This document shows positions 2,235-53,473 of a DNA stretch of 64,000 nucleotides, piece by piece. This stretch comes from Acidobacteria bacterium Mor1 (lineage in GTDB: Bacteria > Acidobacteriota > Polarisedimenticolia > Polarisedimenticolales > Polarisedimenticolaceae). The stretch is taken from contig CP011806.1 of assembly GCA_001664505.1 (NCBI GenBank), positions 448,609 through 512,608 of the forward strand. Reading direction: 5' to 3'. The position numbers and the translations under genes were made by a program. The stretch's first letter is position 1. Each line of letters opens with the position of its first letter. A model generated the notes under the pieces. The model was given only the letters and a program-made list of their open reading frames with translations, searched no databases and was not told where the DNA came from.

Positions 2235-3013
2235 CGAACCTCCGAGCCCCCCTCGTCGATTTCCAGTCGCAAACCATCGTACGCGATGCGCACGTTTTCC
2301 GGCAGTTCCGCTTCCCCCTCGCTGTGCAGCACCTCGTGGCTCAGGTGGGTGAACCAGGTCCGCTCGGCGCCGATCACCCGGGCGGCTTCGACCGCCTGTT
2401 CGAAGTTCATGTGGGTCGGATGGGGCCGGCGGCGCAGGGCGCCGATGACCAGGTGCTCCAGTCCGTCAAGCAGCGGCAGGCTGCTCTCGGGGATCCGGCT
2501 CACGTCGGTCACGTAGGCGAAGCGGCCGATGCGGTAGCCGTAGATCGGCATCCGGCCGTGAAAGATCGGTACCGGAATCACCGTCTTGCCCCGCAGCTCG
2601 AAGGGGGTCTCCACGGGGCGGCGGTCGAGGGCGGGCTTGGTCGACTCGTTGGGCCCGGTGTCGAACACGTACCAGAAGGTCCGCCCCAGCTTGTCGAGGG
2701 TGTCGGCCGAACCGTAGGCCTCGATCGGGGCCGCCTGGCGCCAGTTGTAGATCCGCAGCTCATCGAGGCCGAGCACGTGGTCGGCGTGGGCGTGGGTGTA
2801 AAGGATCGCGTCCACCCGTTGGATCTTCTCGCGCAAGGCCTGCTGGCGCAGATCGGTGGAGGTGTCGATCAGGATGGAGGCATCCTCCCACTCGAGGAAC
2901 ACCGAGGGGCGCAGCCGCCGGTCTCGCGGGTCGTCGGAGGTGCAGATCGCGCAATCACAGGTCGGAACGGGGACGCCGCTCGAGGTTCCGGTGCCGAGAA
3001 AGGTGACGCGCAT
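2231..3013 (-). CDS. MBL-fold metallohydrolase, RNase Z / PhnP-like
   Basis: A metallo-beta-lactamase fold hydrolase of about 260 residues. The N-terminus has the LGTGTSSGVPVPTC pattern typical of the PhnP / RNase Z-like branch. The metal-binding THAHADH motif follows near residue 75, and there are later single His and Asp ligands (FHGR, YVTDVS, THLSHE). PhnP relatives are cyclic phosphodiesterases, but the substrate here cannot be read from sequence. I prefer the ATG at 3011-3013 over the upstream in-frame ATG at 3020-3022. The earlier one lies within a TATCAT -10-like box, and only 7 nt separate that box from the chosen ATG. It lies 44 nt downstream of pyrF and is coupled to the next gene. 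Confidence 0.88.
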   Translation of the reverse strand: MRVTFLGTGTSSGVPVPTCDCAICTSDDPRDRRLRPSVFLEWEDASILIDTSTDLRQQALREKIQRVDAILYTHAHADHVLGLDELRIYNWRQAAPIEAYGSADTLDKLGRTFWYVFDTGPNESTKPALDRRPVETPFELRGKTVIPVPIFHGRMPIYGYRIGRFAYVTDVSRIPESSLPLLDGLEHLVIGALRRRPHPTHMNFEQAVEAARVIGAERTWFTHLSHEVLHSEGEAELPENVRIAYDGLRLEIDEGGSEVR

Positions 3014-3020
3014 GGGAAAC

Positions 3021-3026
3021 ATGATA
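3021..3026 (-). promoter_or_regulatory. Possible -10 box for a leaderless MBL transcript
   Basis: On the minus strand TATCAT lies 7 nt before the preferred ATG at 3013. No Shine-Dalgarno sequence and no clear -35 are visible. It matches the spacing seen at several other starts in this window. Confidence 0.35.
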
Positions 3027-13416: not shown

Positions 13417-13422
13417 TAAATT
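13417..13422 (+). promoter_or_regulatory. Possible -10 box directly before the sigma-32-like gene
   Basis: TAAATT lies 6 nt before the ATG at 13429. No -35 box or Shine-Dalgarno is visible in the GC-rich 44-nt gap. A transcript from here would be leaderless. Confidence 0.3.
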
Positions 13423-13428
13423 GTCGGT

Positions 13429-14409
13429 ATGGCCGAAGAGCCGACCGAGCCGACACCCATCGACCCCGAGGTCCTGACCGACCCCCTCGGCGACTCAGGC
13501 GACGACGACGATTCCACCGCCGAGTCCACGGCGTTGGCCCCCACCAGCACCGCTCTCGCACCGACCGATCCGTTCCAGCGCTACATGGCCGAGGCGCGGC
13601 GCTATCCGCCGCTGACCCGCGAGGAGGAGCAGGAGCTGGCCCGCCGTTACCGGGAGACCGGGGACCGGGAAGCGCTGTTCCGGCTGGTCACGTCCAACCT
13701 GATGCTGGTGGTCCGGGTCGCCTTCTCCTTCCGCCGGGCGGCGCGCAACGTGCTGGACCTGATCCAGGAGGGGAATCTGGGCCTCCTGGCGGCCATCGAC
13801 CGTTTCGACCCCGACGTGGGGGTGCGGCTTCCGACCTACGCGGCGTACTGGGTTCGGGCCTACATGGTCAAGTTCCTGCTGGATAACGTCCGGCTGGTCC
13901 GGGTCGGCACCACCAACGCCCGCCGCAAGCTGCTGCGCAACCTGCGCAAGGAAAAGCAGCGCCTCGAGGAGCAGGGCTACGACGTCGGCCCCAAACTGCT
14001 GGCCGAGCATTTCGGCGTGTCCGAGCAGGACGTGGTCGACGTTCAGGCCGCCCTGGACTCCCGGGATGTGCACCTGGACGCACCGGTCGACGAGGAAGGC
14101 CGCTCACGGGCCGAGGTGCTGCCCGCCGCCGACGAGAACATCGAGGACTCGGTGGCTCGCCGCGAGCTTCAGGAGCGGGTCGAGGGGATCCTGGCGGAGT
14201 TTCGCGAGGGGCTCAACGAGCGGGAGCTGGTGATTCTAGACGAGCGCCTGCTGGCCGAAGACCCCAAGACCCTCCAGGTTCTGGGCGACCGTTTCGGAAC
14301 GACACGGGAGGCGGTACGCCAGGCTGAGAATCGTCTCAAGAAGAGACTCACCGAGTTCGTCAAGGAACGGCTCCCGGACATGGGAGACATCAAGATCGGC
14401 TCTTCCTGA
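13429..14409 (+). CDS. RNA polymerase sigma factor, sigma-32 / RpoH-like
   Basis: A 326-residue sigma-70 family protein without region 1.1. An acidic, Ala/Thr-rich N-terminus (1-45) is followed by region 1.2 (DPFQRYMAEARRYPPLTREEE). Region 2 has the core-binding DLIQEGNLGLLAAIDRFDP and the -10 recognition TYAAYWVRAYM. Region 3 follows, and region 4 has the helix-turn-helix TLQVLGDRFGTTREAVRQ. The pattern matches the RpoH group, which reads heat-shock promoters, but a related alternative sigma is possible. ATG at 13429 is preceded by TAAATT and no Shine-Dalgarno. Confidence 0.88.
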   Translation: MAEEPTEPTPIDPEVLTDPLGDSGDDDDSTAESTALAPTSTALAPTDPFQRYMAEARRYPPLTREEEQELARRYRETGDREALFRLVTSNLMLVVRVAFSFRRAARNVLDLIQEGNLGLLAAIDRFDPDVGVRLPTYAAYWVRAYMVKFLLDNVRLVRVGTTNARRKLLRNLRKEKQRLEEQGYDVGPKLLAEHFGVSEQDVVDVQAALDSRDVHLDAPVDEEGRSRAEVLPAADENIEDSVARRELQERVEGILAEFREGLNERELVILDERLLAEDPKTLQVLGDRFGTTREAVRQAENRLKKRLTEFVKERLPDMGDIKIGSS

Positions 14410-19840: not shown

Positions 19841-19846
19841 TACAAT
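19841..19846 (+). promoter_or_regulatory. Possible -10 box for a leaderless phosphoesterase transcript
   Basis: TACAAT lies 8 nt before the ATG at 19855, with no Shine-Dalgarno between them and no clear -35. It has the same geometry as other starts in the window. Confidence 0.4.
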
Positions 19847-19854
19847 CGTGGGTC

Positions 19855-20553
19855 ATGGAACGACTTTTTGCCCTGGCGGACCTGCACCTCTCGACCTCCG
19901 GTGACAAGCCGATGCACATCTTCGGCGAGCACTGGCGGGACCATGCCGACCGGATGGCGGCGGCCTGGGACGAACGGGTGGGGGATGAGGACGTGGTGCT
20001 GTTGCCCGGAGATCTCTCCTGGGCCCGCAAGCTCGACGAGGCCCGGGGGGACCTGGATTGGATCGGAGCCCGCCCCGGCCGCAAGCTGCTGCTCAAGGGA
20101 AACCACGACACCTGGTGGTCCAGCGTCAACAAGGTCCGGGCGGCCCTGCCCGAAGGCTGCGACGCGCTGCAGAACAACGCCTTCGAACTCGAGAGATTCG
20201 TCGTCGTCGGAGCGCGGGGCTGGACCGCGCCCGAGGATCCGATCGCAACCGAAGACGACGGCAAGCTGCACATGCGGGAACTGGAGCGCCTGCGGCTTTC
20301 GATCCTCGATGCCGACCGCCGCTTCGGCCGCGACAAACCCCGGGTGGCCATGCTGCACTTTCCGCCGTGGCTTCTGGACCAGGCTCCGACCCGGGTGATC
20401 GGTCTGCTGCAGAACGGGGGCGTGAGCCTCTGCGTCTACGGTCACCTGCACGGCGACGATCATCGCCACGCCGTCACCGGCGTGCGTGACGGGATCGACT
20501 TCCGGTTGGTCGCCGCCGACGCGGTCGACTTCGCGCCGGTGGAGTTGCCTTGA
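19855..20553 (+). CDS. Metallophosphoesterase, calcineurin-like
   Basis: 232 residues with the dinuclear metal motifs in order: ADLHLS (DxH) at 8-13, LPGDLSW (GDxx) near 49, LKGNHDTWW (GNHD) near 79-87, a later His in LHFPPW and the final GHLHGD. This is a complete active-site set for a cytoplasmic phosphoesterase. The closest pattern I know is the uncharacterised YkuE/MPP group. The substrate is not deducible. The ATG at 19855 was chosen because upstream in-frame sequence contains the TACAAT promoter box. It is coupled to the next gene by overlapping TTGA. Confidence 0.9.
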   Translation: MERLFALADLHLSTSGDKPMHIFGEHWRDHADRMAAAWDERVGDEDVVLLPGDLSWARKLDEARGDLDWIGARPGRKLLLKGNHDTWWSSVNKVRAALPEGCDALQNNAFELERFVVVGARGWTAPEDPIATEDDGKLHMRELERLRLSILDADRRFGRDKPRVAMLHFPPWLLDQAPTRVIGLLQNGGVSLCVYGHLHGDDHRHAVTGVRDGIDFRLVAADAVDFAPVELP

Positions 20554-22501: not shown

Positions 22502-24331
22502 CTAGCGTCCGAGCCGGCGCAAGGCTTCGCGGGGAGCGGGCCAGGCGGGATCGAGCCGGGCGGCCTGTTCCAGGTCGGCGATCGCCGCGGTTTGCCGGCG
22601 CTGCCGCAGATGGAACATCCCGCGCGCAAACAGGGTGCCGGCGTTGGCCCCCGGTGCGGCCACCGCAGCGTCGTGTTCCCGCAGCGCCTGATCGACGGCT
22701 CCCTGCCGTTCCAGGGTTTCCGCCAGCCGGCTACGGGTCGAGGCCTCGCGGCCTTCGGGCATGCCCGTTTCCAGGGCGCGGCGGTAGAGCCCCGAGGCTT
22801 GCGCCAGATCCCCGCGCTTCTGACGCAACCAACCGGCCTGATCGAGGGCCACGGCGTGCGCCGGTTCCCCCTCGAGGGCGGGTTCGAGCACGTCGAGCCC
22901 TTCGTCCAGACGGTCCAGGCTCGAGAGGGTTGCAGCCAAACGCACCCGTTCCCGCACGGGGACCTCGGAGCTTCGCACGAAGCTGAAGGCGCAGCCTGCC
23001 GCGACCAGTAGCGCGGCCACGATCACCCCCGTGCGCCGACGTGGGTCGCTCCATCCCAGGAGGGCCCGGTCGACGGCGAACCCGGCAAAGGGGGCGAGCA
23101 GGAAGTAGAAGGGCAGGCGCAGGCGGGTGGTGACGAAGAACAGCAGCAGCACCGCCAACAGGGCCGCGGCGAATCCGATCAGCGGCCAGGCCTTGCGGCG
23201 CTCGGGCCACGCCAGGATCCCGCCGATCAGCCCCGGGAGCAGCAGACCCCACGGGGGGAGTGCCAGCAGGTACAAGAGCGGTAGATACCGTTCCCGTTCC
23301 AGCGCGAAGGAGTACATGTCGGCGGGATCTCCCGGGTCGAGGACCCGCCGCAGCTTGCGGGACTCGAGGGCTATCCAGGCGCCCGGGTCTGCGGTGATGG
23401 CCTCGACGGCGCGGCCGCGCCAGTAGCGGTCGACCTGGCCTGGAGTGAGGGGCGCCCCGGCGGATTCCTCGGCCAGCCGGGTCGCCAGTTCCCGCTGGGA
23501 AAAAATGTCGCCGGCCTGGGGGTGAAGCGCCTTGTGAGACCCGTCGGCGCCCGGTTGGTTGCCGATGTAGAGGTTCTCACCGGCCGACAGGGCAATGCGC
23601 AGCCCGGCGCCCCGGCTCGCGTTGTGGATCAACACCGGCGCGATCACGATCAGGAAGGCGGCGCCGAACCCCGCGGCGTTGCGCAGCCACCCTGGGTCGG
23701 GGCGCCGTCCCGACCAGAGTCGCGGACCCAGGGCGAGAAGGGCGACCGGCACCAGGAGCTGCACCTCGGCCCGGGCCAGGGCGGTGACGCCGAAGGCCGC
23801 GCCGCAGAGCGCGGCGGGAAGCGGGCCCGGTTGCTCGCGACATCGCCCCAGCAGGTAGATCGAGAGGGAGAGGCCCGCCAGGGGGAGCGCCACCGGAAGC
23901 AACTTGATCTGGTGCAGGGCCAGCGGTCCGTGGAGCAGGGCTATCAGGGCCGCCGCCACGCCCGCGCGTTCGGAGCCCAGGTACTGCCGCCCGATAGGGA
24001 CCAGCAGGGCGATGGCCATACCGGCGAGCAGCACCTGAATGAAGATCGCGCTGCCGTGACCGGCTTCGCCCCGAAGCAGCGCCAGGAACACCGGGTAGAG
24101 CGGCGCCTGATGGAAGGCGGGTTCGGCGGAGAGGCCCTCGGCGGCGATCCGCGCCGACCAGGTGTCGTAGGACAGGGCGTCGGAGATCAACGCCTGATCG
24201 AAGGGGCTATCCCGGTGCTGGTACCAGAGCAGCAGGTGCACCGCGACGGCGAGCAGGGCGATCACGGCAAAACGGTTCCCGGAGAGTCGGGAACCGCTTG
24301 ACGTTCTTCGGTTGGAGGAGCGGCGTTTCAC
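22502..24331 (-). CDS. GT39-like polytopic membrane protein with C-terminal TPR domain
   Basis: 609 residues. The N-terminal part is a GT-C fold. After the first membrane helix comes the acidic segment SDALSYDTW, then HQAPLYPVFLALL, the layout of ArnT/PMT-type transferases that use polyprenyl-linked sugars, with about ten membrane helices up to residue 445. From about 460 the rest is soluble and made of TPRs. The start is GTG at 24329-24331, with a near-consensus promoter ending 8 nt upstream. Acceptor and donor are unknown. A flippase or O-antigen-ligase relative is less likely. Confidence 0.82.
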   Translation of the reverse strand: MKRRSSNRRTSSGSRLSGNRFAVIALLAVAVHLLLWYQHRDSPFDQALISDALSYDTWSARIAAEGLSAEPAFHQAPLYPVFLALLRGEAGHGSAIFIQVLLAGMAIALLVPIGRQYLGSERAGVAAALIALLHGPLALHQIKLLPVALPLAGLSLSIYLLGRCREQPGPLPAALCGAAFGVTALARAEVQLLVPVALLALGPRLWSGRRPDPGWLRNAAGFGAAFLIVIAPVLIHNASRGAGLRIALSAGENLYIGNQPGADGSHKALHPQAGDIFSQRELATRLAEESAGAPLTPGQVDRYWRGRAVEAITADPGAWIALESRKLRRVLDPGDPADMYSFALERERYLPLLYLLALPPWGLLLPGLIGGILAWPERRKAWPLIGFAAALLAVLLLFFVTTRLRLPFYFLLAPFAGFAVDRALLGWSDPRRRTGVIVAALLVAAGCAFSFVRSSEVPVRERVRLAATLSSLDRLDEGLDVLEPALEGEPAHAVALDQAGWLRQKRGDLAQASGLYRRALETGMPEGREASTRSRLAETLERQGAVDQALREHDAAVAAPGANAGTLFARGMFHLRQRRQTAAIADLEQAARLDPAWPAPREALRRLGR

Positions 24332-24339
24332 GGCCGCCC

Positions 24340-24368
24340 ATTATGGACCTTCCGCCGGCGCCGGTCAG
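24340..24368 (-). promoter_or_regulatory. Promoter immediately before the GT39-like gene (leaderless)
   Basis: On the minus strand CTGACC (24363-24368), 17 nt, then CATAAT (24340-24345) and 8 nt to the GTG start. Both boxes are near sigma-70 consensus. The expected start site falls at or next to the GTG, and there is no Shine-Dalgarno. It begins just after the pepF stop. Confidence 0.55.
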
Positions 24369-29273: not shown

Positions 29274-29303
29274 TTGTCCCGGTGCCGGCCCGGACCCTAG
29301 ATT
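29274..29303 (+). promoter_or_regulatory. Promoter directly before the AglD-type gene (leaderless)
   Basis: TTGTCC (29274-29279), an 18-nt spacer, TAGATT (29298-29303), then 9 nt to ATG 29313. No Shine-Dalgarno is present, so the transcript would start within a few nucleotides of the ATG. Confidence 0.5.
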
Positions 29304-29312
29304 CGCCGCGCC

Positions 29313-30371
29313 ATGAAGTCAGCGATCAAGTACCTGGCCGGTTTCCTGCTCGCGGGATTCCTGCTCTGGTGGATGTTGCGGGACAAGGACCTCGGCGCCA
29401 TCTGGGAGCAGATCCAGCAGGCCTCCTTCGCCGGTCTGGCCTTCGCCGCCCTACTCAACATCCTCCACGCGATTCCACGGGCCTGGCGCTGGGGCAGCCT
29501 GCTCAAGCCGGTCCGCAGCGGGATCCCCATGCGGCCGATGGTCTCGGCGATCATGATCGGCTACATGATGACCTGGGTCGTTCCGGGCCGCGTCGGCGAG
29601 GTGGTGCGTCCGGCGCTGCTCTCCTCCCGGGAGCGGGTGCCCCTGGGCCCCTGTCTCGGCTCGATCCTCGCGGACCGACTGCTGGACGGCATCACGGTGC
29701 TGGTGCTGTTCGCCGTTGCGCTGGTGGTGCAGCCGCTGGACCAGGGTGAGGCAGGGGATCGCATCCGCCAGGGAGCGTTCATCCTCCTCGGGCTGGTCGG
29801 CTTCGGCCTCGGCGTGCTGCTCTTCGCTGCACAGTTCCGCCGTCCGCTGGAGGTCTGGCTGGCACGGCGCAACAAATTGATTGCATGGTGTGGCCGCACG
29901 ATCCTGAGATTCTCCGAAGGGGTCGAGGCCTTGCGCCGCCCGCGGCTCCTGCTCGAGGTGGTGTTCCAGAGCGCCGTGGTTTGGATCGTGATCTGTATCG
30001 CGACCTGGATCGGACTGCGGTCCTGCGGCGTCGAGATCTCCTTCTGGGGAGTCCTGGCGTTGATGCCGCTGCTGGCTTTGGGCATCGCCGTGCCCACCCC
30101 GGGCAATGCCGGGGGCTATTCCTTCGTGATGGAGCTCGGGCTGAGCGAGATGTTCAAGGTCCCGGGGGATCTGGCTGCAACGGCCGGGTTGCTCTTGTGG
30201 ATCATGGTGGTCGTGCCGCCGATCCTGCTGGGTGTGTTGATCCTGGCGGTGGAAGGGGTGTCCTGGAGCGATCTGATGCGGGCTGCCCGCGAGGTCAAGA
30301 ACCTCGGCTCTGCCGAGGAGCAGGCCTCGCAGGCATCGACGCCGGCAACGGCGGAAGCGCCCGCGGAATAG
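29313..30371 (+). CDS. Lysylphosphatidylglycerol synthase TM region / UPF0104 (AglD-like) membrane protein
   Basis: 352 residues with about eight membrane helices, starting [20 protein letters not shown]. The family pattern [21 protein letters not shown] near 76-96 and the late segment [12 protein letters not shown] (about 260) match PF03706. Members include the flippase half of MprF and many uncharacterised lipid-related membrane proteins. There is no C-terminal synthase domain here, so lipid translocation is possible but unproven. A short Ala/Glu-rich tail ends the protein. nrdR follows after 43 nt. Confidence 0.85.
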
Positions 30372-39724: not shown

Positions 39725-40579
39725 GTGCAGTCCCTCGACCTCAACCTCGCGTCGCGGCCCTTCCGCAACAACACCCTGCTCTGGGCCTGCTACGGCCTGG
39801 CGGTGGTGCTGCTGGTGGCCTTCAGCGTCTGGAACTACCAGACCTACTCAACCGCCAGCACCGACTACGACAACCTCAAGGCCAGCGTGGCCAACGTCGA
39901 GCAGCGGATGAAGCTGCTGGAAGACCGGGACCGCAAGGCTCAGCAGGACATCCGCTCCTTCAACCTGCGGACCCTACAGACCCAGACCGACAAGGCCAAC
40001 GACGTCATCTCCTGGCGCGCCTTCTCCTGGACGCGCCTCTTCAACATTCTCGAGTGGGTCCAGCCTTACGATGTACGGATGACCTCGGTGCGGCCGGTGT
40101 TCCTGGCCTCGGAGCGTACCCGGGCGACCCGGAGGGACGAGAGTCCGATCCCCGACGGGGCGGTGCCCGTGCGGGTTCGCGGCATTGCCAAGGACCGGGA
40201 GGCGTTCCTCGAGCTGCAGCGTGAACTCTTGGTCGACCCTCGTTTCGACAAGGTCGAACCCGAACGGGTCAACACCGATCCAGCGACCAACGAACTGACC
40301 TTCGAGCTGGGTTTCCTGTACTTCCCCAGCGGTTACGGCACCTGCGAGGATCGCGCGTCCGTCGAAGCCGTACAGGCACGGGGCACGCCCCAGGAGATCT
40401 ACTGCACTGAAGGGCTCGGGGAGCCGCCGCTGGATCCGGTCGATCCGGAAGCGGAAGCGGAAGCGGAAGCCGGCGATGCGGTCGCGTCGGAAGGTGAAGG
40501 GGGCGGCGACGAGCCGGCCGAGGCGGACGACGCCTCGAGCGCCTCGGCCAAGGCCGACGACAACGAAGGGAGCGCGTGA
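39725..40579 (+). CDS. pilN: PilN-like inner-membrane protein with acidic tail
   Basis: 284 residues from GTG 39725. The N-terminal LNLASRPFRN is the PilM-binding motif seen in PilN proteins. One transmembrane helix (about 18-36) is followed by a coiled coil and a periplasmic ferredoxin-like region. The last about 45 residues are acidic and low-complexity (Glu/Ala/Asp). They are encoded partly by four tandem ggaagc units, which is unusual for PilN. The gene starts 3 nt after pilM and overlaps pilO. Confidence 0.88.
   Translation: MQSLDLNLASRPFRNNTLLWACYGLAVVLLVAFSVWNYQTYSTASTDYDNLKASVANVEQRMKLLEDRDRKAQQDIRSFNLRTLQTQTDKANDVISWRAFSWTRLFNILEWVQPYDVRMTSVRPVFLASERTRATRRDESPIPDGAVPVRVRGIAKDREAFLELQRELLVDPRFDKVEPERVNTDPATNELTFELGFLYFPSGYGTCEDRASVEAVQARGTPQEIYCTEGLGEPPLDPVDPEAEAEAEAGDAVASEGEGGGDEPAEADDASSASAKADDNEGSA
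40447..40470 (+). repeat. Tandem hexanucleotide repeat (ggaagc)x4 inside pilN
   Basis: Four perfect copies of ggaagc encode alternating Glu-Ala in the acidic PilN tail. As a multiple of three, length change would alter tail length without a frameshift. Confidence 0.8.
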
Positions 40580-41211
40580 TGGCCGGCCTGCGCAAGTTCG
40601 ATATTCGCCGCTCGGGCAAGATCATCCTGATCGTGCTCGGAGTGTGGCTGTTCATCAACGCCGGGTTCTGGCTCGGCCTGGTTTCTCCCAAGACCAAGCA
40701 GCTGGCTGCCTTCGAGCAGGAACAGCTGCCCCGGTTGACCGCCGAAAAGGCCCGCAAGAAGCAGGTCGAAGAGAGCGAGGGCTACTACAACGCCCTGGTC
40801 AAGGCCGAGGAAGATCTGGCTCATCTGCGGGAAGAGGTGCTCTCGACCAAGCGCAGCAAGCAGGTCGAGGCCCAGCTCGAGATGGATCGCATCGCCAAGC
40901 AGTTCGGCGTCGATATGGCCCGGGTTCAGTACGAGAACAGCGAGCTACTCAACGAGGCGCTGGATCGCTTCGCCATGACCGCACCCCTCGAGGGCGGCTA
41001 CGGGAACCTGCGCCGCTTCATCCAGGCGGTGGAGAGTTCCAAGCTGTTCCTGGTGATCGAGCGGGTCGACCTGGAGCAGGGCAAGGACGGCGGCGTGATG
41101 CTGCAGCTCAACATCACCGTGGCGGCCTATTTCGACTCGCCGCAGCTGCGTGAGAAGAAGGCGGGATCGACCCGCCGGGGTGGCGACGACAAACCACGGG
41201 GTCGCACGTGA
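40579..41211 (+). CDS. pilO: PilO-like inner-membrane protein
   Basis: 210 residues from ATG 40579 (a GTG directly before it is an alternative). A short cytoplasmic N-terminus precedes one transmembrane helix (about 15-36). Then come a coiled coil (about 40-105) and a periplasmic alpha/beta domain ending in VMLQLNITVAAYF, followed by a basic tail. It forms the PilN-PilO heterodimer that carries the PilP-like proteins to the secretin. It overlaps the pilN stop. Confidence 0.87.
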   Translation: MAGLRKFDIRRSGKIILIVLGVWLFINAGFWLGLVSPKTKQLAAFEQEQLPRLTAEKARKKQVEESEGYYNALVKAEEDLAHLREEVLSTKRSKQVEAQLEMDRIAKQFGVDMARVQYENSELLNEALDRFAMTAPLEGGYGNLRRFIQAVESSKLFLVIERVDLEQGKDGGVMLQLNITVAAYFDSPQLREKKAGSTRRGGDDKPRGRT

Positions 41212-42634: not shown

Positions 42635-45163
42635 GTGAGTAGGAATCGTTTCCTTCGCGCGGTCGCGCTCCTGGTGGCGGTGAGCTTCATCGTCGGATGC
42701 GCTGCGCAGAAGTCGTACCGGCGCGGTGAGATGTACGGCCGGCGCGGCAACTGGGACCAGGCCGTGATCGAGTTGACCAAGGCGGCCAACAAGGACCCGG
42801 GCAACTCTCGCTACAGCGTCGCCCTCGAGCGGGCCAAGCTCAAGGCCTCGGCGGAGCACTTCCAGAAGGGCAAGCGCCTGGTCGGTGCCCGGCAGTACGA
42901 GGCGGCGATCGCCGAGTTCCAGCAGACCCTGCTGCTCAACCCCGGCAACCAGCACGCGGTGACCGAGCTCGAGCGGGCCGCCCGGGAACTGCAGAAGCTG
43001 CGGGACGACCCATCCCAGATCCAGAAGGCCAAGGAGGCTGCGGCGCGCCGCCAGCTGGGCCCGCCGAAGCTCGATCCACAGGGCAACATCGAGATCATGG
43101 TCAAGTTCATCGACCAGCCGGTGGAGAAGATCTTCGAGGCGATCAGCAAGGCCTCGGGGGTCAACTTCATCTTCGATGAGAAGACCGATCTGGACAAGCC
43201 GCTGACCGTGGACATCGGAAGCGTCACCGTCGAGCAGGCCCTCGACATCCTGATGCTCCAGACCAAGAACTTCTACAAGGTGGTCGACGCCCACACCCTG
43301 CTGATCGCTCCGGACTCCCGGCAGAAGCGCCAGGAGTACGAAGACCACGTGATCCGCACCTTCTACCTGAGTAACGGCGACACCAAGCAGGTCGTGACTC
43401 TGCTGCGCTCGCTGCTACAGTCCCGGCAGATCGCCGAGAACACCGATCTCAACTCGGTGACCATCAAGGACACGCCGGACAAGGTCGCCATCGCCGACCG
43501 CATCATCCAGGCCAACGACAAGTCCAAGGGTGAGGTGCTGATCGACGTCGAGCTGCTCGAGATCAACCGTTCGGTGGTCCAGCAGCTGGGTCTCGACCTT
43601 TCGAGCAAGACCCTGAGTCTTTCGTTCTCCGGCGCCGACGGCGTTGCGCTGAACAACCTCGACAGCCTCAAGCAGGAAGGCAACTGGTCGATCGGACCGA
43701 TCCCCAGCGTCGTGCTGAACTTCCTCAAGAGCGATTCCGAGACCCGCTCGATCGCCAAGCCTTCGCTGCGCGTCACCGAGGGTGAGAAGGCGGAGATCCT
43801 GATCGGTGACCGGGTGCCGATCCCGACGGTCTCGTTCAACACCTCCCAGACCGTAGGCGGCAACATCGTTCCGCTGACGTCGTTTACCTACCAGAACGTG
43901 GGTATCACGGTGCAGCTCGAGCCCCGGGTGCATCACAACAAGGAAATCACCCTCAAGGTCCAGGTGGAGATCAGCTCCATCGGTGCCTTCATCGATACCG
44001 GCGGCGGTCAGAGCCAGCCGATCATCGGTACCCGCAACATCCAGACGGTGATCCGGCTGCGGGACGGTGAGACCAACATGCTGGCCGGCCTGATCCGGAC
44101 CACCGAGGAAGACTCGGTGACCGGCGTGCCGGGGCTGCTGGACGTGCCCGGGCTGAACAAGGTCTTCGGCAACAACAGTAACGACACCACCGAGCAGGAT
44201 ATCGTCCTGACCCTGACGCCCCACATCGTGCGGATTCCGGATATCACCGATGACGATCTGGTGACCCTGTGGGTCGGTACCGAGGAGAACATGCAGATGC
44301 GCGGTGCGGCTCGCACCGAGTCCGGCGTGTCTCCCTTCGGCCGCCCCGAGGACTTCGGCGGCGAAGCCGCCGGCACCGATCCGGCGTTGCTCCTGCCGGG
44401 AGGCGGGCGCAGCCGCGGGGTCCTCTCGAAGACCCTGCCTTCGCCCAGCGGCGGCGGTGGGGCCCGCTCCGGCGGCGGTGCTGCCGGCGGCGGCCGGGCC
44501 CGTCCCACCGGGGATCCCTCGGCCGGCGGGTCGACCAACGAGCAGGGCGGGGCCCTGGGAGTCGGCGGCAGCGGCCAGGGCAACAACACCGATCCGGGGC
44601 AGACCGATCCCGCCGGCGACGATCCGGCCCAGGATGACTCCCGGGACGACCGCAACGACGAGGACGACGACGATCGCGATCGGGACCGGGCCTCCAACGA
44701 TGAGCCCGGCGACGAAGGCGAAGAGGAAGAGGACGAGCCTGCCGGCCCCATGATGGTGCGCCTGGTGCCCGACCGGGCCAGCTACCGCGCCGGAGAGACG
44801 ATCAACGTCTCGATCGTGCTGGAGAACGGCAAGAACGTCGGCTCGGCGCCGTTCCACCTGCGCTACGACCGGGGCATCGTCGAGTTCGTCGGTGCCGCCG
44901 AAGGCAACGTGCTGAACGGCGACGGCCAGGGCACGATCTTCCTGGCCCAGGACGCCCAGGGCGGCGGCGAGGTGGTCGTCGGCCATTCCCGTCTGGGAAG
45001 CGGTACCGGCATCGACGGATCGGGAACCCTGAGCAGTATGCAGTTCCTGGCGATGAATCCGGGCAACGCCGGCTTCGTCTTCAGCCGGGCCAACCTGAAG
45101 AACCCCCAGGCCCAGACGATTCAGGCGGTGTTCATGGCACCGCCGGTGTTGGTCGCCGACTGA
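42635..45163 (+). CDS. Secretin lipoprotein (PilQ/GspD family) with C-terminal cohesin domain
   Basis: 842 residues from GTG 42635 with AAGGGG upstream. A lipoprotein signal ends at SFIVGC (C21 by this start). TPR-like repeats (about 35-125) precede the N0 domain (about 150-220), the N1 domain (about 235-310) and the secretin barrel. The barrel has VPIPTVSF in its core and TNMLAGLIR and LTPHIVR at its end (to about 545). A Gly-rich then strongly acidic disordered linker (about 575-705) leads to a cohesin-type beta domain to the end (LVPDRASYRAGETINVSIVL onward). Outer-membrane channel of the system. Confidence 0.93.
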   Translation: MSRNRFLRAVALLVAVSFIVGCAAQKSYRRGEMYGRRGNWDQAVIELTKAANKDPGNSRYSVALERAKLKASAEHFQKGKRLVGARQYEAAIAEFQQTLLLNPGNQHAVTELERAARELQKLRDDPSQIQKAKEAAARRQLGPPKLDPQGNIEIMVKFIDQPVEKIFEAISKASGVNFIFDEKTDLDKPLTVDIGSVTVEQALDILMLQTKNFYKVVDAHTLLIAPDSRQKRQEYEDHVIRTFYLSNGDTKQVVTLLRSLLQSRQIAENTDLNSVTIKDTPDKVAIADRIIQANDKSKGEVLIDVELLEINRSVVQQLGLDLSSKTLSLSFSGADGVALNNLDSLKQEGNWSIGPIPSVVLNFLKSDSETRSIAKPSLRVTEGEKAEILIGDRVPIPTVSFNTSQTVGGNIVPLTSFTYQNVGITVQLEPRVHHNKEITLKVQVEISSIGAFIDTGGGQSQPIIGTRNIQTVIRLRDGETNMLAGLIRTTEEDSVTGVPGLLDVPGLNKVFGNNSNDTTEQDIVLTLTPHIVRIPDITDDDLVTLWVGTEENMQMRGAARTESGVSPFGRPEDFGGEAAGTDPALLLPGGGRSRGVLSKTLPSPSGGGGARSGGGAAGGGRARPTGDPSAGGSTNEQGGALGVGGSGQGNNTDPGQTDPAGDDPAQDDSRDDRNDEDDDDRDRDRASNDEPGDEGEEEEDEPAGPMMVRLVPDRASYRAGETINVSIVLENGKNVGSAPFHLRYDRGIVEFVGAAEGNVLNGDGQGTIFLAQDAQGGGEVVVGHSRLGSGTGIDGSGTLSSMQFLAMNPGNAGFVFSRANLKNPQAQTIQAVFMAPPVLVAD

Positions 45164-48100: not shown

Positions 48101-48130
48101 TTGTTCGGCCCCGGGCGGCCGGGCTATACT
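48101..48130 (+). promoter_or_regulatory. Promoter directly before the M16 peptidase gene (leaderless)
   Basis: TTGTTC (48101-48106), an 18-nt spacer and TATACT (48125-48130), then 8 nt to ATG 48139. There is no Shine-Dalgarno. It is the clearest example of the leaderless arrangement in this window. Confidence 0.6.
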
Positions 48131-48138
48131 CCCGCCGG

Positions 48139-49401
48139 ATGATTCGCAAAGAAACCCTCGACAACGGTTTGCTGCTGCTGACCGAATCCATCCCACACGT
48201 CCGCTCGGTCACCATCGGAGTCTGGCTCAAACAGGGCAGCCGCCATGAGCCTCCGGCGGTCAACGGCATCTCCCACTTCCTGGAACATCTGGTCTTCAAG
48301 GGCACCGACCGCCGGTCGGCTCACGAGATCGCTCTGGCCGCCGACCGGGTAGGGATGCAGCTCGACGCCTTCACGACCAAGGAATACACCTGCTTCTACG
48401 CCAAGGTCCTCGACGAACATCTCGAGGAGTGCGTCGACTTGCTGGCGGACATCGTCCAGCACCCGCGATTCGACCCGGTCGAGCTGGAGCGGGAACGGCA
48501 GGTGGTTCTGGAAGAGATCCGCATGGTCGAGGACTCTCCCGAGGAGCTGGTTTACGACCTGTTCTCCGAGGCGTTCTACGCGGGCCACGCCCTGGGGCGT
48601 CCGATCCAGGGGACCGAGCAGACCGTCGGCGCCATGAGCCGGCGGCGGCTACAGCGTTTCTTCCGGGATTCCTATTGTCCGGACCGGATGCTGATCGTCG
48701 CTGCGGGCAGTCTCAAGCATGGCCGTGTGGCGCGGATGCTTCGGGAGGGTTTCGGGGGTATGAAGTCCCGCAATGTCGGAACCCGCCGCACCCGCCCGCC
48801 GAAAGCCAAGAGCGGCATCGTCAAACGCTCGAAGAAGGAACTGGAACAGCTGCACCTGCTGCTGGGCATGCCCGCCTTCGCCGAGACCCACGACGACCGC
48901 TACGCGCTGTTCGTGATGAACACCCTGCTGGGGGGCACCATGTCCTCCCGCCTGTTCCAGAAGATCCGAGAGGAGCGGGGGCTGGTCTACAGCGTCTACT
49001 CGGGGATCAACGCCTTCAGCGACAGCGGATTCCTGATGGTCTCGGCGGCGACCAGCCCCGAGAAAGGGCGTGAAGTGCTCGATCTGACTCTCGATGAGCT
49101 CCGGGACCTGCGGGACCGCGGCGCCACCGAGGAGGAGGTCGACGTTGCCAAGCGCAATCTCAAGAGCAGCCTGATGCTCTCCCTCGAGTCCACCTCGAGC
49201 CGCATGTCGAACCTGGCCCGCCAGGAGATCTACTACGGTCGCCAGCACACCCTGCGGGATGTGCTGCGCCGCATCGACAAGGTCGATGCCGCCCGGGTGC
49301 ACAAGGTCACCCGCAAGCTTTGCGACGGGGCCCGCCCGGGACTCGCCGCCGTGGGCAAGCTCGGCCGGTTCCGGCTGCGCGAATCGGAGCTGGCGCTCTA
49401 G
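48139..49401 (+). CDS. M16 family zinc peptidase (processing-peptidase-like)
   Basis: 420 residues, the length of the short single-unit M16B enzymes (mitochondrial processing peptidase beta-like). The inverted zinc motif HFLEH is at 46-50 within [14 protein letters not shown]. The third ligand Glu falls in [15 protein letters not shown] near 127-135. The second half carries the inactive-like domain with [22 protein letters not shown]. It is a probable cytoplasmic or periplasmic oligopeptidase; no signal peptide is seen. dut follows after 16 nt. Confidence 0.94.
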
Positions 49402-52023: not shown

Positions 52024-52058
52024 ACGAGACAGGACGGGACGCCCCGGCTTCCCTCTGG

Positions 52059-52064
52059 TAGAAT
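52059..52064 (+). promoter_or_regulatory. Possible -10 box of purF
   Basis: TAGAAT lies 23 nt before ATG 52088, with a poor -35 (GGGACG at 52036). The implied leader is about 17 nt, pyrimidine-rich and without a Shine-Dalgarno. Confidence 0.4.
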
Positions 52065-52087
52065 CCCGGTTTCTCTTTCTGGCGACT

Positions 52088-53473
52088 ATGTGCGGAATCG
52101 TTGGAATCTTCGGTCATCCTGAGGCGGCGAACCTGGCCTACCTGGGCCTCTACGCCTTGCAGCACCGCGGCCAGGAGTCGGGCGGCATCGTCACCGAGTC
52201 CGGGCGCAGCCTTCATCGGCGGGCCAAGATGGGCCTGGTGGCCGACGGCTTCGACCGGAAGATCCTGAAGGATCTGCCCGGCGAGTGCGCCATCGGCCAC
52301 GTGCGCTACTCGACCTCCGGCGACACCAACCCGGCCAACGCCCAGCCCTTTCTGCTGCAGCATCACCGGGGCCCGATCGCCGTGGCCCACAACGGCAACC
52401 TGGTCGACGCCGCCGTGGTCCGCGCGGATCTCGAGGCGGACGGCTCGATCTTCCAGACGACCACCGACACCGAGACGATCCTGCATCTGGTGGCGAGGTC
52501 CAAGGCGGCCGACGTCGCCGATGCCATCACCGAGTCCCTGGGGCAACTCCACGGAGCTTTCTCCCTGGTGTTCCTGGTGCCCGGCCGGCTGATCGCCGTC
52601 CGCGATCCCATGGGTTTCCGCCCGCTCTCCCTGGGCAAGGTCGACGGCACCTGGGTCGTGGCCAGTGAGAGCTGCGCCTTCGACCTGATCGGCGCCGAGT
52701 ACGTCCGCGACCTGGAGCGGGGCGAGATGGTGGTCATCGACGTGGCCGGGGTCCATTCGTTCCGGCCCTGGGGCCCGGAACGGCCGGCCCGCTGCCTGTT
52801 CGAGCATGTCTACCTGGCCCGGCCCGACAGCAAGCTGTTCGGGCACTCGGTCCAGCGGGTGCGCAAGCGGATGGGCGCGGAGCTGTGGGAGGAGCATCCG
52901 GCCGACGTGGATGTGGTCATCCCCGTGCCCGATTCCGGCGTCTACGCCGGTATGGGCTACGCCAATGCCTCGGGACGCCCCTTCGAGATGGGGTTGGTGC
53001 GCAACCACTACGTGGGCCGCACCTTCATCGAGCCGACCCAGCAGATCCGCAACTTCGGCGTCCGGGTCAAGCTCAACCCGGTTCGCGAGTTGATGCGGGG
53101 CCGCCGGATCGCCCTGATCGACGACTCCCTGGTCCGGGGCACCACCAGCAAGAAGATCGTCCAGCTCTGTCGCGAGGCGGGAGCGACCGAGGTGCACGTG
53201 CGCATCTCCTGTCCGCCCACGGTGGCGCCCTGTTACTACGGAATCGACACTCCGGTGCGTGACGAGTTGATCGCCGCCAACAAATCCGTTCACGAGATCC
53301 GCGACTTCATCGGTGCCGACAGCCTGGGTTACCTGAGCCTCGACGGCATGACCCGGGCGGCGGAAACCAAGGAAGACGAGGTCTGCACCGCGTGCTGGAC
53401 CGACAAGTACCCGGTGGCGCTGCCGCCGGCCCAGTCGGAGCAGCTGCGGCTCTTCGAGAAAACCAAGCGCTGA
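52088..53473 (+). CDS. purF: Amidophosphoribosyltransferase
   Basis: First committed enzyme of purine synthesis, converting PRPP and glutamine to phosphoribosylamine. It has 461 residues. The N-terminal nucleophile Cys2 directly follows Met (MCGIVGIFGH), so there is no propeptide of the Bacillus kind. The glutamine amidotransferase half runs to about 230. The PRPP site is IALIDDSLVRGTTSKK near 345-360. C-terminal Cys residues (DEVCTACWTDKYP) recall the Fe-S-containing B. subtilis type. It is 64 nt after purB with its own possible -10. Confidence 0.97.
   Translation: MCGIVGIFGHPEAANLAYLGLYALQHRGQESGGIVTESGRSLHRRAKMGLVADGFDRKILKDLPGECAIGHVRYSTSGDTNPANAQPFLLQHHRGPIAVAHNGNLVDAAVVRADLEADGSIFQTTTDTETILHLVARSKAADVADAITESLGQLHGAFSLVFLVPGRLIAVRDPMGFRPLSLGKVDGTWVVASESCAFDLIGAEYVRDLERGEMVVIDVAGVHSFRPWGPERPARCLFEHVYLARPDSKLFGHSVQRVRKRMGAELWEEHPADVDVVIPVPDSGVYAGMGYANASGRPFEMGLVRNHYVGRTFIEPTQQIRNFGVRVKLNPVRELMRGRRIALIDDSLVRGTTSKKIVQLCREAGATEVHVRISCPPTVAPCYYGIDTPVRDELIAANKSVHEIRDFIGADSLGYLSLDGMTRAAETKEDEVCTACWTDKYPVALPPAQSEQLRLFEKTKR

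What the first reader, a model, noticed from the sequence alone, without database searches (positions are those of the whole stretch)
48101..48141. Recurring -10 box 6-9 nt before start codons without Shine-Dalgarno: widespread leaderless mRNAs
Six gene starts show the same geometry: M16 peptidase (TTGTTC-18-TATACT-8-ATG, 48101), AglD-like (TTGTCC-18-TAGATT-9-ATG, 29274), GT39-like on the minus strand (CTGACC-17-CATAAT-8-GTG, 24340-24368), phosphoesterase (TACAAT-8-ATG, 19841), MBL on the minus strand (TATCAT-7-ATG, 3021) and sigma-32-like (TAAATT-6-ATG, 13417). Initiation about 7 nt after the -10 would put the start codon at or next to +1. Genes inside operons, and carD or PPC, keep normal ribosome sites. 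This looks like a general feature of the host.
Basis: partly seen in the sequence, partly recalled or inferred. Interest (0 to 1): 0.7.

Follow-up and report, generated by a model that had tools for sequence, protein, structure and literature searches.

The report
Leaderless-mRNA promoters in an Acidobacteriota genome
In this bacterium (by its nearest relatives an acidobacterium) about one in ten first-of-operon genes has its promoter so close to the start codon that the messenger RNA should begin at, or within a few bases of, that codon; this is real and found across the genome, but it is a known bacterial habit rather than a new one.

Summary
The proposed genome-wide count was run on 1.26 Mb of the same 5.99-Mb chromosome with a gene finder that ignores upstream sequence. 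TANNNT sits 6-10 nt before the start codon in 56 of 506 operon-leading genes (11.1%), against 10.8 +/- 3.0 in dinucleotide shuffles. The positional peak (6, 9, 10, 12, 19) falls to 1 once the spacer drops below 6 nt, where transcription would start inside the codon. These boxes have TTG at -35 spacing far more often than coding TANNNT (17/56 vs 10/671), almost never a Shine-Dalgarno, and no TTG starts. Operon-internal genes show 2.2%; E. coli is depleted; Salinispora, of a known leaderless group, gives 9.1%. Orthologues keep the box in 8/8 family/order relatives (sigma-like) and 7/9 (AglD-like) although surrounding DNA has diverged. Corrections: Shine-Dalgarno remains the main mode; the excess is 7-9% of leading genes (a lower bound); the GT39 case (CATAAT) is unsupported and M16's box is not conserved in the family. 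The phenomenon is known: Zheng et al. 2011 reported 9.7-19.4% leaderless genes in Acidobacteria. No RNA 5' ends were available.

The parts
48101..48106 (+). -35-like TTGTTC of the M16 peptidase gene
   Evidence: not conserved in family relatives
48125..48130 (+). -10 TATACT, 8 nt before the ATG at 48139 (M16 peptidase, PF00675/PF05193)
   Evidence: box absent in 7 family/order relatives, some of which carry GAGG instead; a similar arrangement recurs elsewhere in the class, e.g. L152-L154
29274..29279 (+). -35-like TTGTCC of the AglD-like (PF03706) gene
   Evidence: relatives carry TTGACC/TTGATT/TTGAAC at the same place
29298..29303 (+). -10 TAGATT, 9 nt before the ATG at 29313
   Evidence: conserved in 7 of 9 family/order relatives with 0.36 identity in the 17 nt before it
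13417..13422 (+). -10 TAAATT, 6 nt before the ATG at 13429 (sigma-70-family factor with regions 1.2, 2 and 4)
   Evidence: TANNNT 6-8 nt before the start in 8 of 8 family/order relatives
19841..19846 (+). -10 TACAAT, 8 nt before the ATG at 19855 (calcineurin-like phosphoesterase)
   Evidence: conserved in 3 of 6 relatives
3021..3026 (-). -10 TATCAT, 7 nt before the ATG at 3013 (metallo-beta-lactamase-fold hydrolase)
   Evidence: 1 of 6 relatives has the arrangement
24340..24368 (-). CTGACC-17-CATAAT, 8 nt before a GTG at 24331 (GT39/PMT_2-like with TPRs); doubtful
   Evidence: 0 of 5 relatives, start codon itself uncertain; CANNNT not enriched genome-wide

Best explanation
In this chromosome a minority of operon-leading genes, about 7-9% above background and probably more once start-calling errors are allowed for, are transcribed from sigma-70-type promoters whose -10 box (TANNNT, preferring TAnAaT) lies 6-10 nt before the start codon. 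RNA polymerase initiating about 7 nt after the box makes an mRNA that begins at the start codon or a few nucleotides before it. With no room for a Shine-Dalgarno, such an mRNA would be bound through its 5'-terminal AUG/GUG and initiator tRNA, as for known leaderless mRNAs. The promoter placement is shown statistically and by conservation; the exact 5' ends and the ribosome mechanism are inferred from established knowledge.
For: Offset peak -16..-12 with a cut-off at -11. 56/506 vs shuffles 10.8 +/- 3.0; 50/15551 at internal codons; in an unbiased screen of 3-letter gapped words TANNNT is the best signal apart from Shine-Dalgarno-like purine words. Most rearrangements of the same letters (ATNNNT, TNANNT, ANNNTT and others) are not enriched; aligned boxes show TAnAaT and TTG peaking at 17-18 spacing. 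-35 TTG in 17/56 vs 10/671 for coding TANNNT, p = 5e-14, similar to other upstream TANNNT (42/185). Only 1 of 56 has a Shine-Dalgarno vs 212/450 of the rest, p = 3e-13, whereas TANNNT at -45..-26 is positively associated with one. ATG 46/56 vs 298/450 (p = 0.015), TTG 0/56 vs 35/450 (p = 0.02). Operon-internal 2.2%, E. coli 4.4% against a background near 12%, Salinispora 9.1%. Orthologues: 19/41 at -16..-12 against 1-7/41 in equal windows elsewhere; sigma 8/8, AglD 7/9, with only 0.31-0.36 identity in adjoining DNA.
Against: No transcript data. The exclusion of Shine-Dalgarno is partly geometric, since several other AT-rich hexamers in the same slot also exclude it. My gene finder gets about 74% of starts exactly right on one E. 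coli stretch (29 of 39), so the percentage is rough. The 200-kb samples of single relatives are too small to be significant one by one. With 9-10 nt spacers a leader of 2-4 nt is possible rather than none.
Confidence: 0.9

Rival explanations
1. Chance: TANNNT is a short motif and the reader picked favourable cases from about 50 genes.
For: CATAAT of GT39 and the M16 box are not conserved in the family; CANNNT not enriched.
Against: Fivefold excess over shuffles with a sharp positional peak, still 53/483 without the discovery window, and conservation in orthologues.
Confidence: 0.04
2. AT-rich start context: the region before the start is kept AT-rich to avoid mRNA structure, and TANNNT is a by-product.
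For: Many high-GC bacteria have A/T-rich translation starts (general knowledge).
Against: Most rearranged words of the same letters are not enriched at the same offsets, the spacer between box and start is GC-rich, and a -35 accompanies the box at 17-18 nt.
Confidence: 0.02
3. Wrong start codons: the true start lies downstream, so these are ordinary promoters with short leaders.
For: The gene finder miscalls about a quarter of starts; TANNNT at -45..-26 goes together with a Shine-Dalgarno.
Against: For AglD-like, phosphoesterase and M16 most alignments in relatives run from residue 1-3; the hard edge between -12 and -11 is expected only if the real start is the codon called; the genes lack a Shine-Dalgarno.
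Confidence: 0.04

Closest known systems
Leaderless genes with TA-like (TANNNT) signals about 12 bp before the start (Zheng et al. 2011, PMC3160421)
   Same: Same motif, same position (about 12 bp, counted from the first T), coexistence with Shine-Dalgarno genes; Acidobacteria listed with 9.7-19.4% leaderless genes.
   Different: Only three Acidobacteria genomes were covered there; this lineage and the orthologue-level conservation are additional.
-10 region adjacent to ORFs in Deinococcus-Thermus (Zhong et al. 2025, PMC12340547)
   Different: Nearly one third of D. radiodurans genes there, against about one tenth of leading genes here; the most frequent word is TACACT there, TAGAAT-like here; experimental support only there.
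Actinobacterial leaderless transcription
   Same: Salinispora, processed with the same pipeline, gives a similar fraction (9.1%) and position.
   Different: Other phylum; signal there more tightly at -14..-12.

Membership tests
Bacterial leaderless genes (promoter-adjacent start codon) | -10 box (TANNNT) about 12 bp before the start codon, enriched over background | tested here: met
Bacterial leaderless genes (promoter-adjacent start codon) | The box belongs to a sigma-70-type promoter (-35 at proper spacing) | tested here: met
   TTG at 16-19 spacing in 17/56 vs 10/671
Bacterial leaderless genes (promoter-adjacent start codon) | No Shine-Dalgarno before the start | tested here: met
   1 of 56; partly geometric
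Bacterial leaderless genes (promoter-adjacent start codon) | Concentrated in first genes of transcription units | tested here: met
   11.1% of leading vs 2.2% of internal genes
Bacterial leaderless genes (promoter-adjacent start codon) | Mapped 5' end at or within a few nt of the start codon | not testable with these tools
   needs dRNA-seq or 5'-RACE
Bacterial leaderless genes (promoter-adjacent start codon) | Translation by recognition of the 5'-terminal start codon (initiator tRNA, IF2-favoured) | not testable with these tools
   established elsewhere (summarised in PMC10783764); inferred here

The most novel reading that the evidence does not exclude
In this order the leaderless arrangement is kept by selection at particular regulatory genes, above all the sigma-70-family factor at 13429 (8 of 8 relatives), so that leaderless translation is itself a regulatory device, for example favouring that sigma factor when the initiation-factor balance or ribosome state changes under stress.
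Probability: 0.15. Interest if true: 0.5.

Novelty: new member of a known kind. Interest (0 to 1): 0.3.

Why it matters
It adds a little-studied lineage to the bacteria that mix leaderless and Shine-Dalgarno initiation, and means that start codons here should be annotated with a leaderless model. The conserved cases (sigma-like, AglD-like) give concrete genes on which to test whether leaderless translation is kept for regulation.

Tried and rejected
Chance, AT-rich start context and start misannotation were tested and judged unlikely for the class as a whole. The GT39-like example was dropped as unsupported. 16S rRNA and its anti-Shine-Dalgarno tail were sought by Rfam model and by exact pattern and not found in the held genome, so the tail could not be read. 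Relatives sampled at 200 kb each point the same way for G007 but are not significant on their own.

Full report
Observation. Pfam supports the gene names: M16 peptidase, LPG_synthase_TM (the AglD-like protein), PMT_2 plus TPR, calcineurin-like phosphoesterase, metallo-beta-lactamase fold, and a sigma factor with regions 1.2, 2 and 4. carD and the PPC-domain gene do carry Shine-Dalgarno sequences.

Host. The window is bases 448609-512608 of a single 5.985-Mb contig, 67% GC. The closest named relatives of its M16 protein are Acidobacteria MAGs and a MAG named only 'bacterium' (the latter, L061, shares the upstream sequence of L146 from the same-family genome G004). The phylum is therefore taken as Acidobacteriota; the class was not settled.

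Genome-wide test. Sixty 20-kb stretches spread over the chromosome plus the window (1.264 Mb) were taken. Genes were called with a Markov coding model that picks starts by coding potential and codon prior only, so that no upstream motif is built in. On one E. coli stretch this finder reproduces 29 of 39 annotated starts, so real signals are blurred and the counts are lower bounds. Of 506 operon-leading genes, 56 have TANNNT starting 16-12 nt before the codon (spacer 10-6 nt). Counts by offset are 6, 9, 10, 12, 19 for -16 to -12, then 1 at -11 and 0 at -10. This edge is what leaderless transcription predicts: a shorter spacer would cut into the start codon. Shuffles give 10.8 +/- 3.0, and internal in-frame ATG/GTG codons 0.3% against 11.1%. 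Without the discovery window, 53 of 483 remain. The excess is 7.2% (95% interval 4.5-10.0) over far upstream positions and 9.2% (6.4-12.2) over near ones.

Are the boxes promoters? Aligned on the box, the positions between TA and T prefer A (TAnAaT), and TTG peaks 23-24 nt before the first T, that is a 17-18 nt spacer. TTG at 16-19 spacing is found in 17/56, against 10/671 for TANNNT inside coding sequence (p = 5e-14) and 42/185 for other upstream TANNNT. Most other orders of the same letters are not enriched (the partial exceptions, TNNANT and TNNNAT, overlap the TAnAaT consensus), so AT-richness is not the cause. The genes lack Shine-Dalgarno (1/56 vs 212/450, p = 3e-13), while TANNNT further upstream goes with a Shine-Dalgarno (odds ratio 2.6). 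Some of this exclusion is geometric, since several control hexamers in the same slot also show it. Starts are ATG more often and never TTG.

Controls in other genomes, same pipeline: E. coli K-12 is below its own background (5/113 vs about 13); the actinobacterium Salinispora, of a group known for leaderless genes, gives 8/88 with the same position. With alternative starts allowed, the order relative G007 gives 12 against 2.5 expected and Latescibacterota 7 against 1.5; these samples are small.

Conservation. In family and order relatives (proteins 41-71% identical over the five better-aligned genes) TANNNT stands at -16..-12 in 8/8 sigma-like, 7/9 AglD-like, 3/6 phosphoesterase, 1/6 MBL, 0/7 M16 and 0/5 GT39 orthologues; in all 19/41, against 1-7/41 for equal windows elsewhere. 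The 17 nt before the box are only 31-36% identical between copies, so box and distance are kept while their surroundings drift. In the AglD-like gene the -35 (TTGACC, TTGATT, TTGAAC) is kept too. For M16, two same-family copies (L142 and L143, from G001 and G005) use GAGG at -10 instead, and another family of the class has TACCAT/TAACAT boxes 7-9 nt before an ATG: the gene seems to have switched mode, as Zheng et al. describe in general.

Novelty. Zheng et al. 2011 (PMC3160421) found the same TANNNT signal at about 12 bp in 207 of 953 bacterial genomes, with 9.7-19.4% of genes in three Acidobacteria and 36-46% in Deinococcus-Thermus. Zhong et al. 2025 (PMC12340547) describe the -10 box 6-7 bp before ORFs in Deinococcus as a working promoter. 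A GeneMarkS-2-based survey cited in PMC9581028 predicts leaderless transcription in 21.6% of bacterial species. This genome is a new member of that known kind. What may deserve follow-up is the strict conservation at the sigma-like gene.

Noticed in passing
window 13429-14409 and L248-L255: The sigma-70-family factor keeps a TANNNT box 6-8 nt before its start in all 8 family/order relatives, the most conserved leaderless arrangement seen; in more distant class members it is mostly not found, though many alignments there do not reach the N-terminus.
   Followed up: partly
window 42731-45163: A secretin (T2SS/T4P type) with TPR, STN and a C-terminal cohesin-type domain, near a T2SSM_b-like gene at 40579-41211.
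   Followed up: no
window 52058-52088: GATase/phosphoribosyltransferase-like gene with TAGAAT about 29 nt before its ATG and no Shine-Dalgarno in between: possibly a short leader without a ribosome site.
   Followed up: no
G000, whole contig: The 16S model (RF00177) and an exact 16S 3'-tail pattern found nothing in the held genome although it is listed as 99.98% complete; perhaps masked or missing from the held copy.
   Followed up: partly
L322-L331 (Latescibacterota): TANNNT near starts also looks enriched (7 vs 1.5 expected with alternative starts) in a Latescibacterota MAG; small sample.
   Followed up: no
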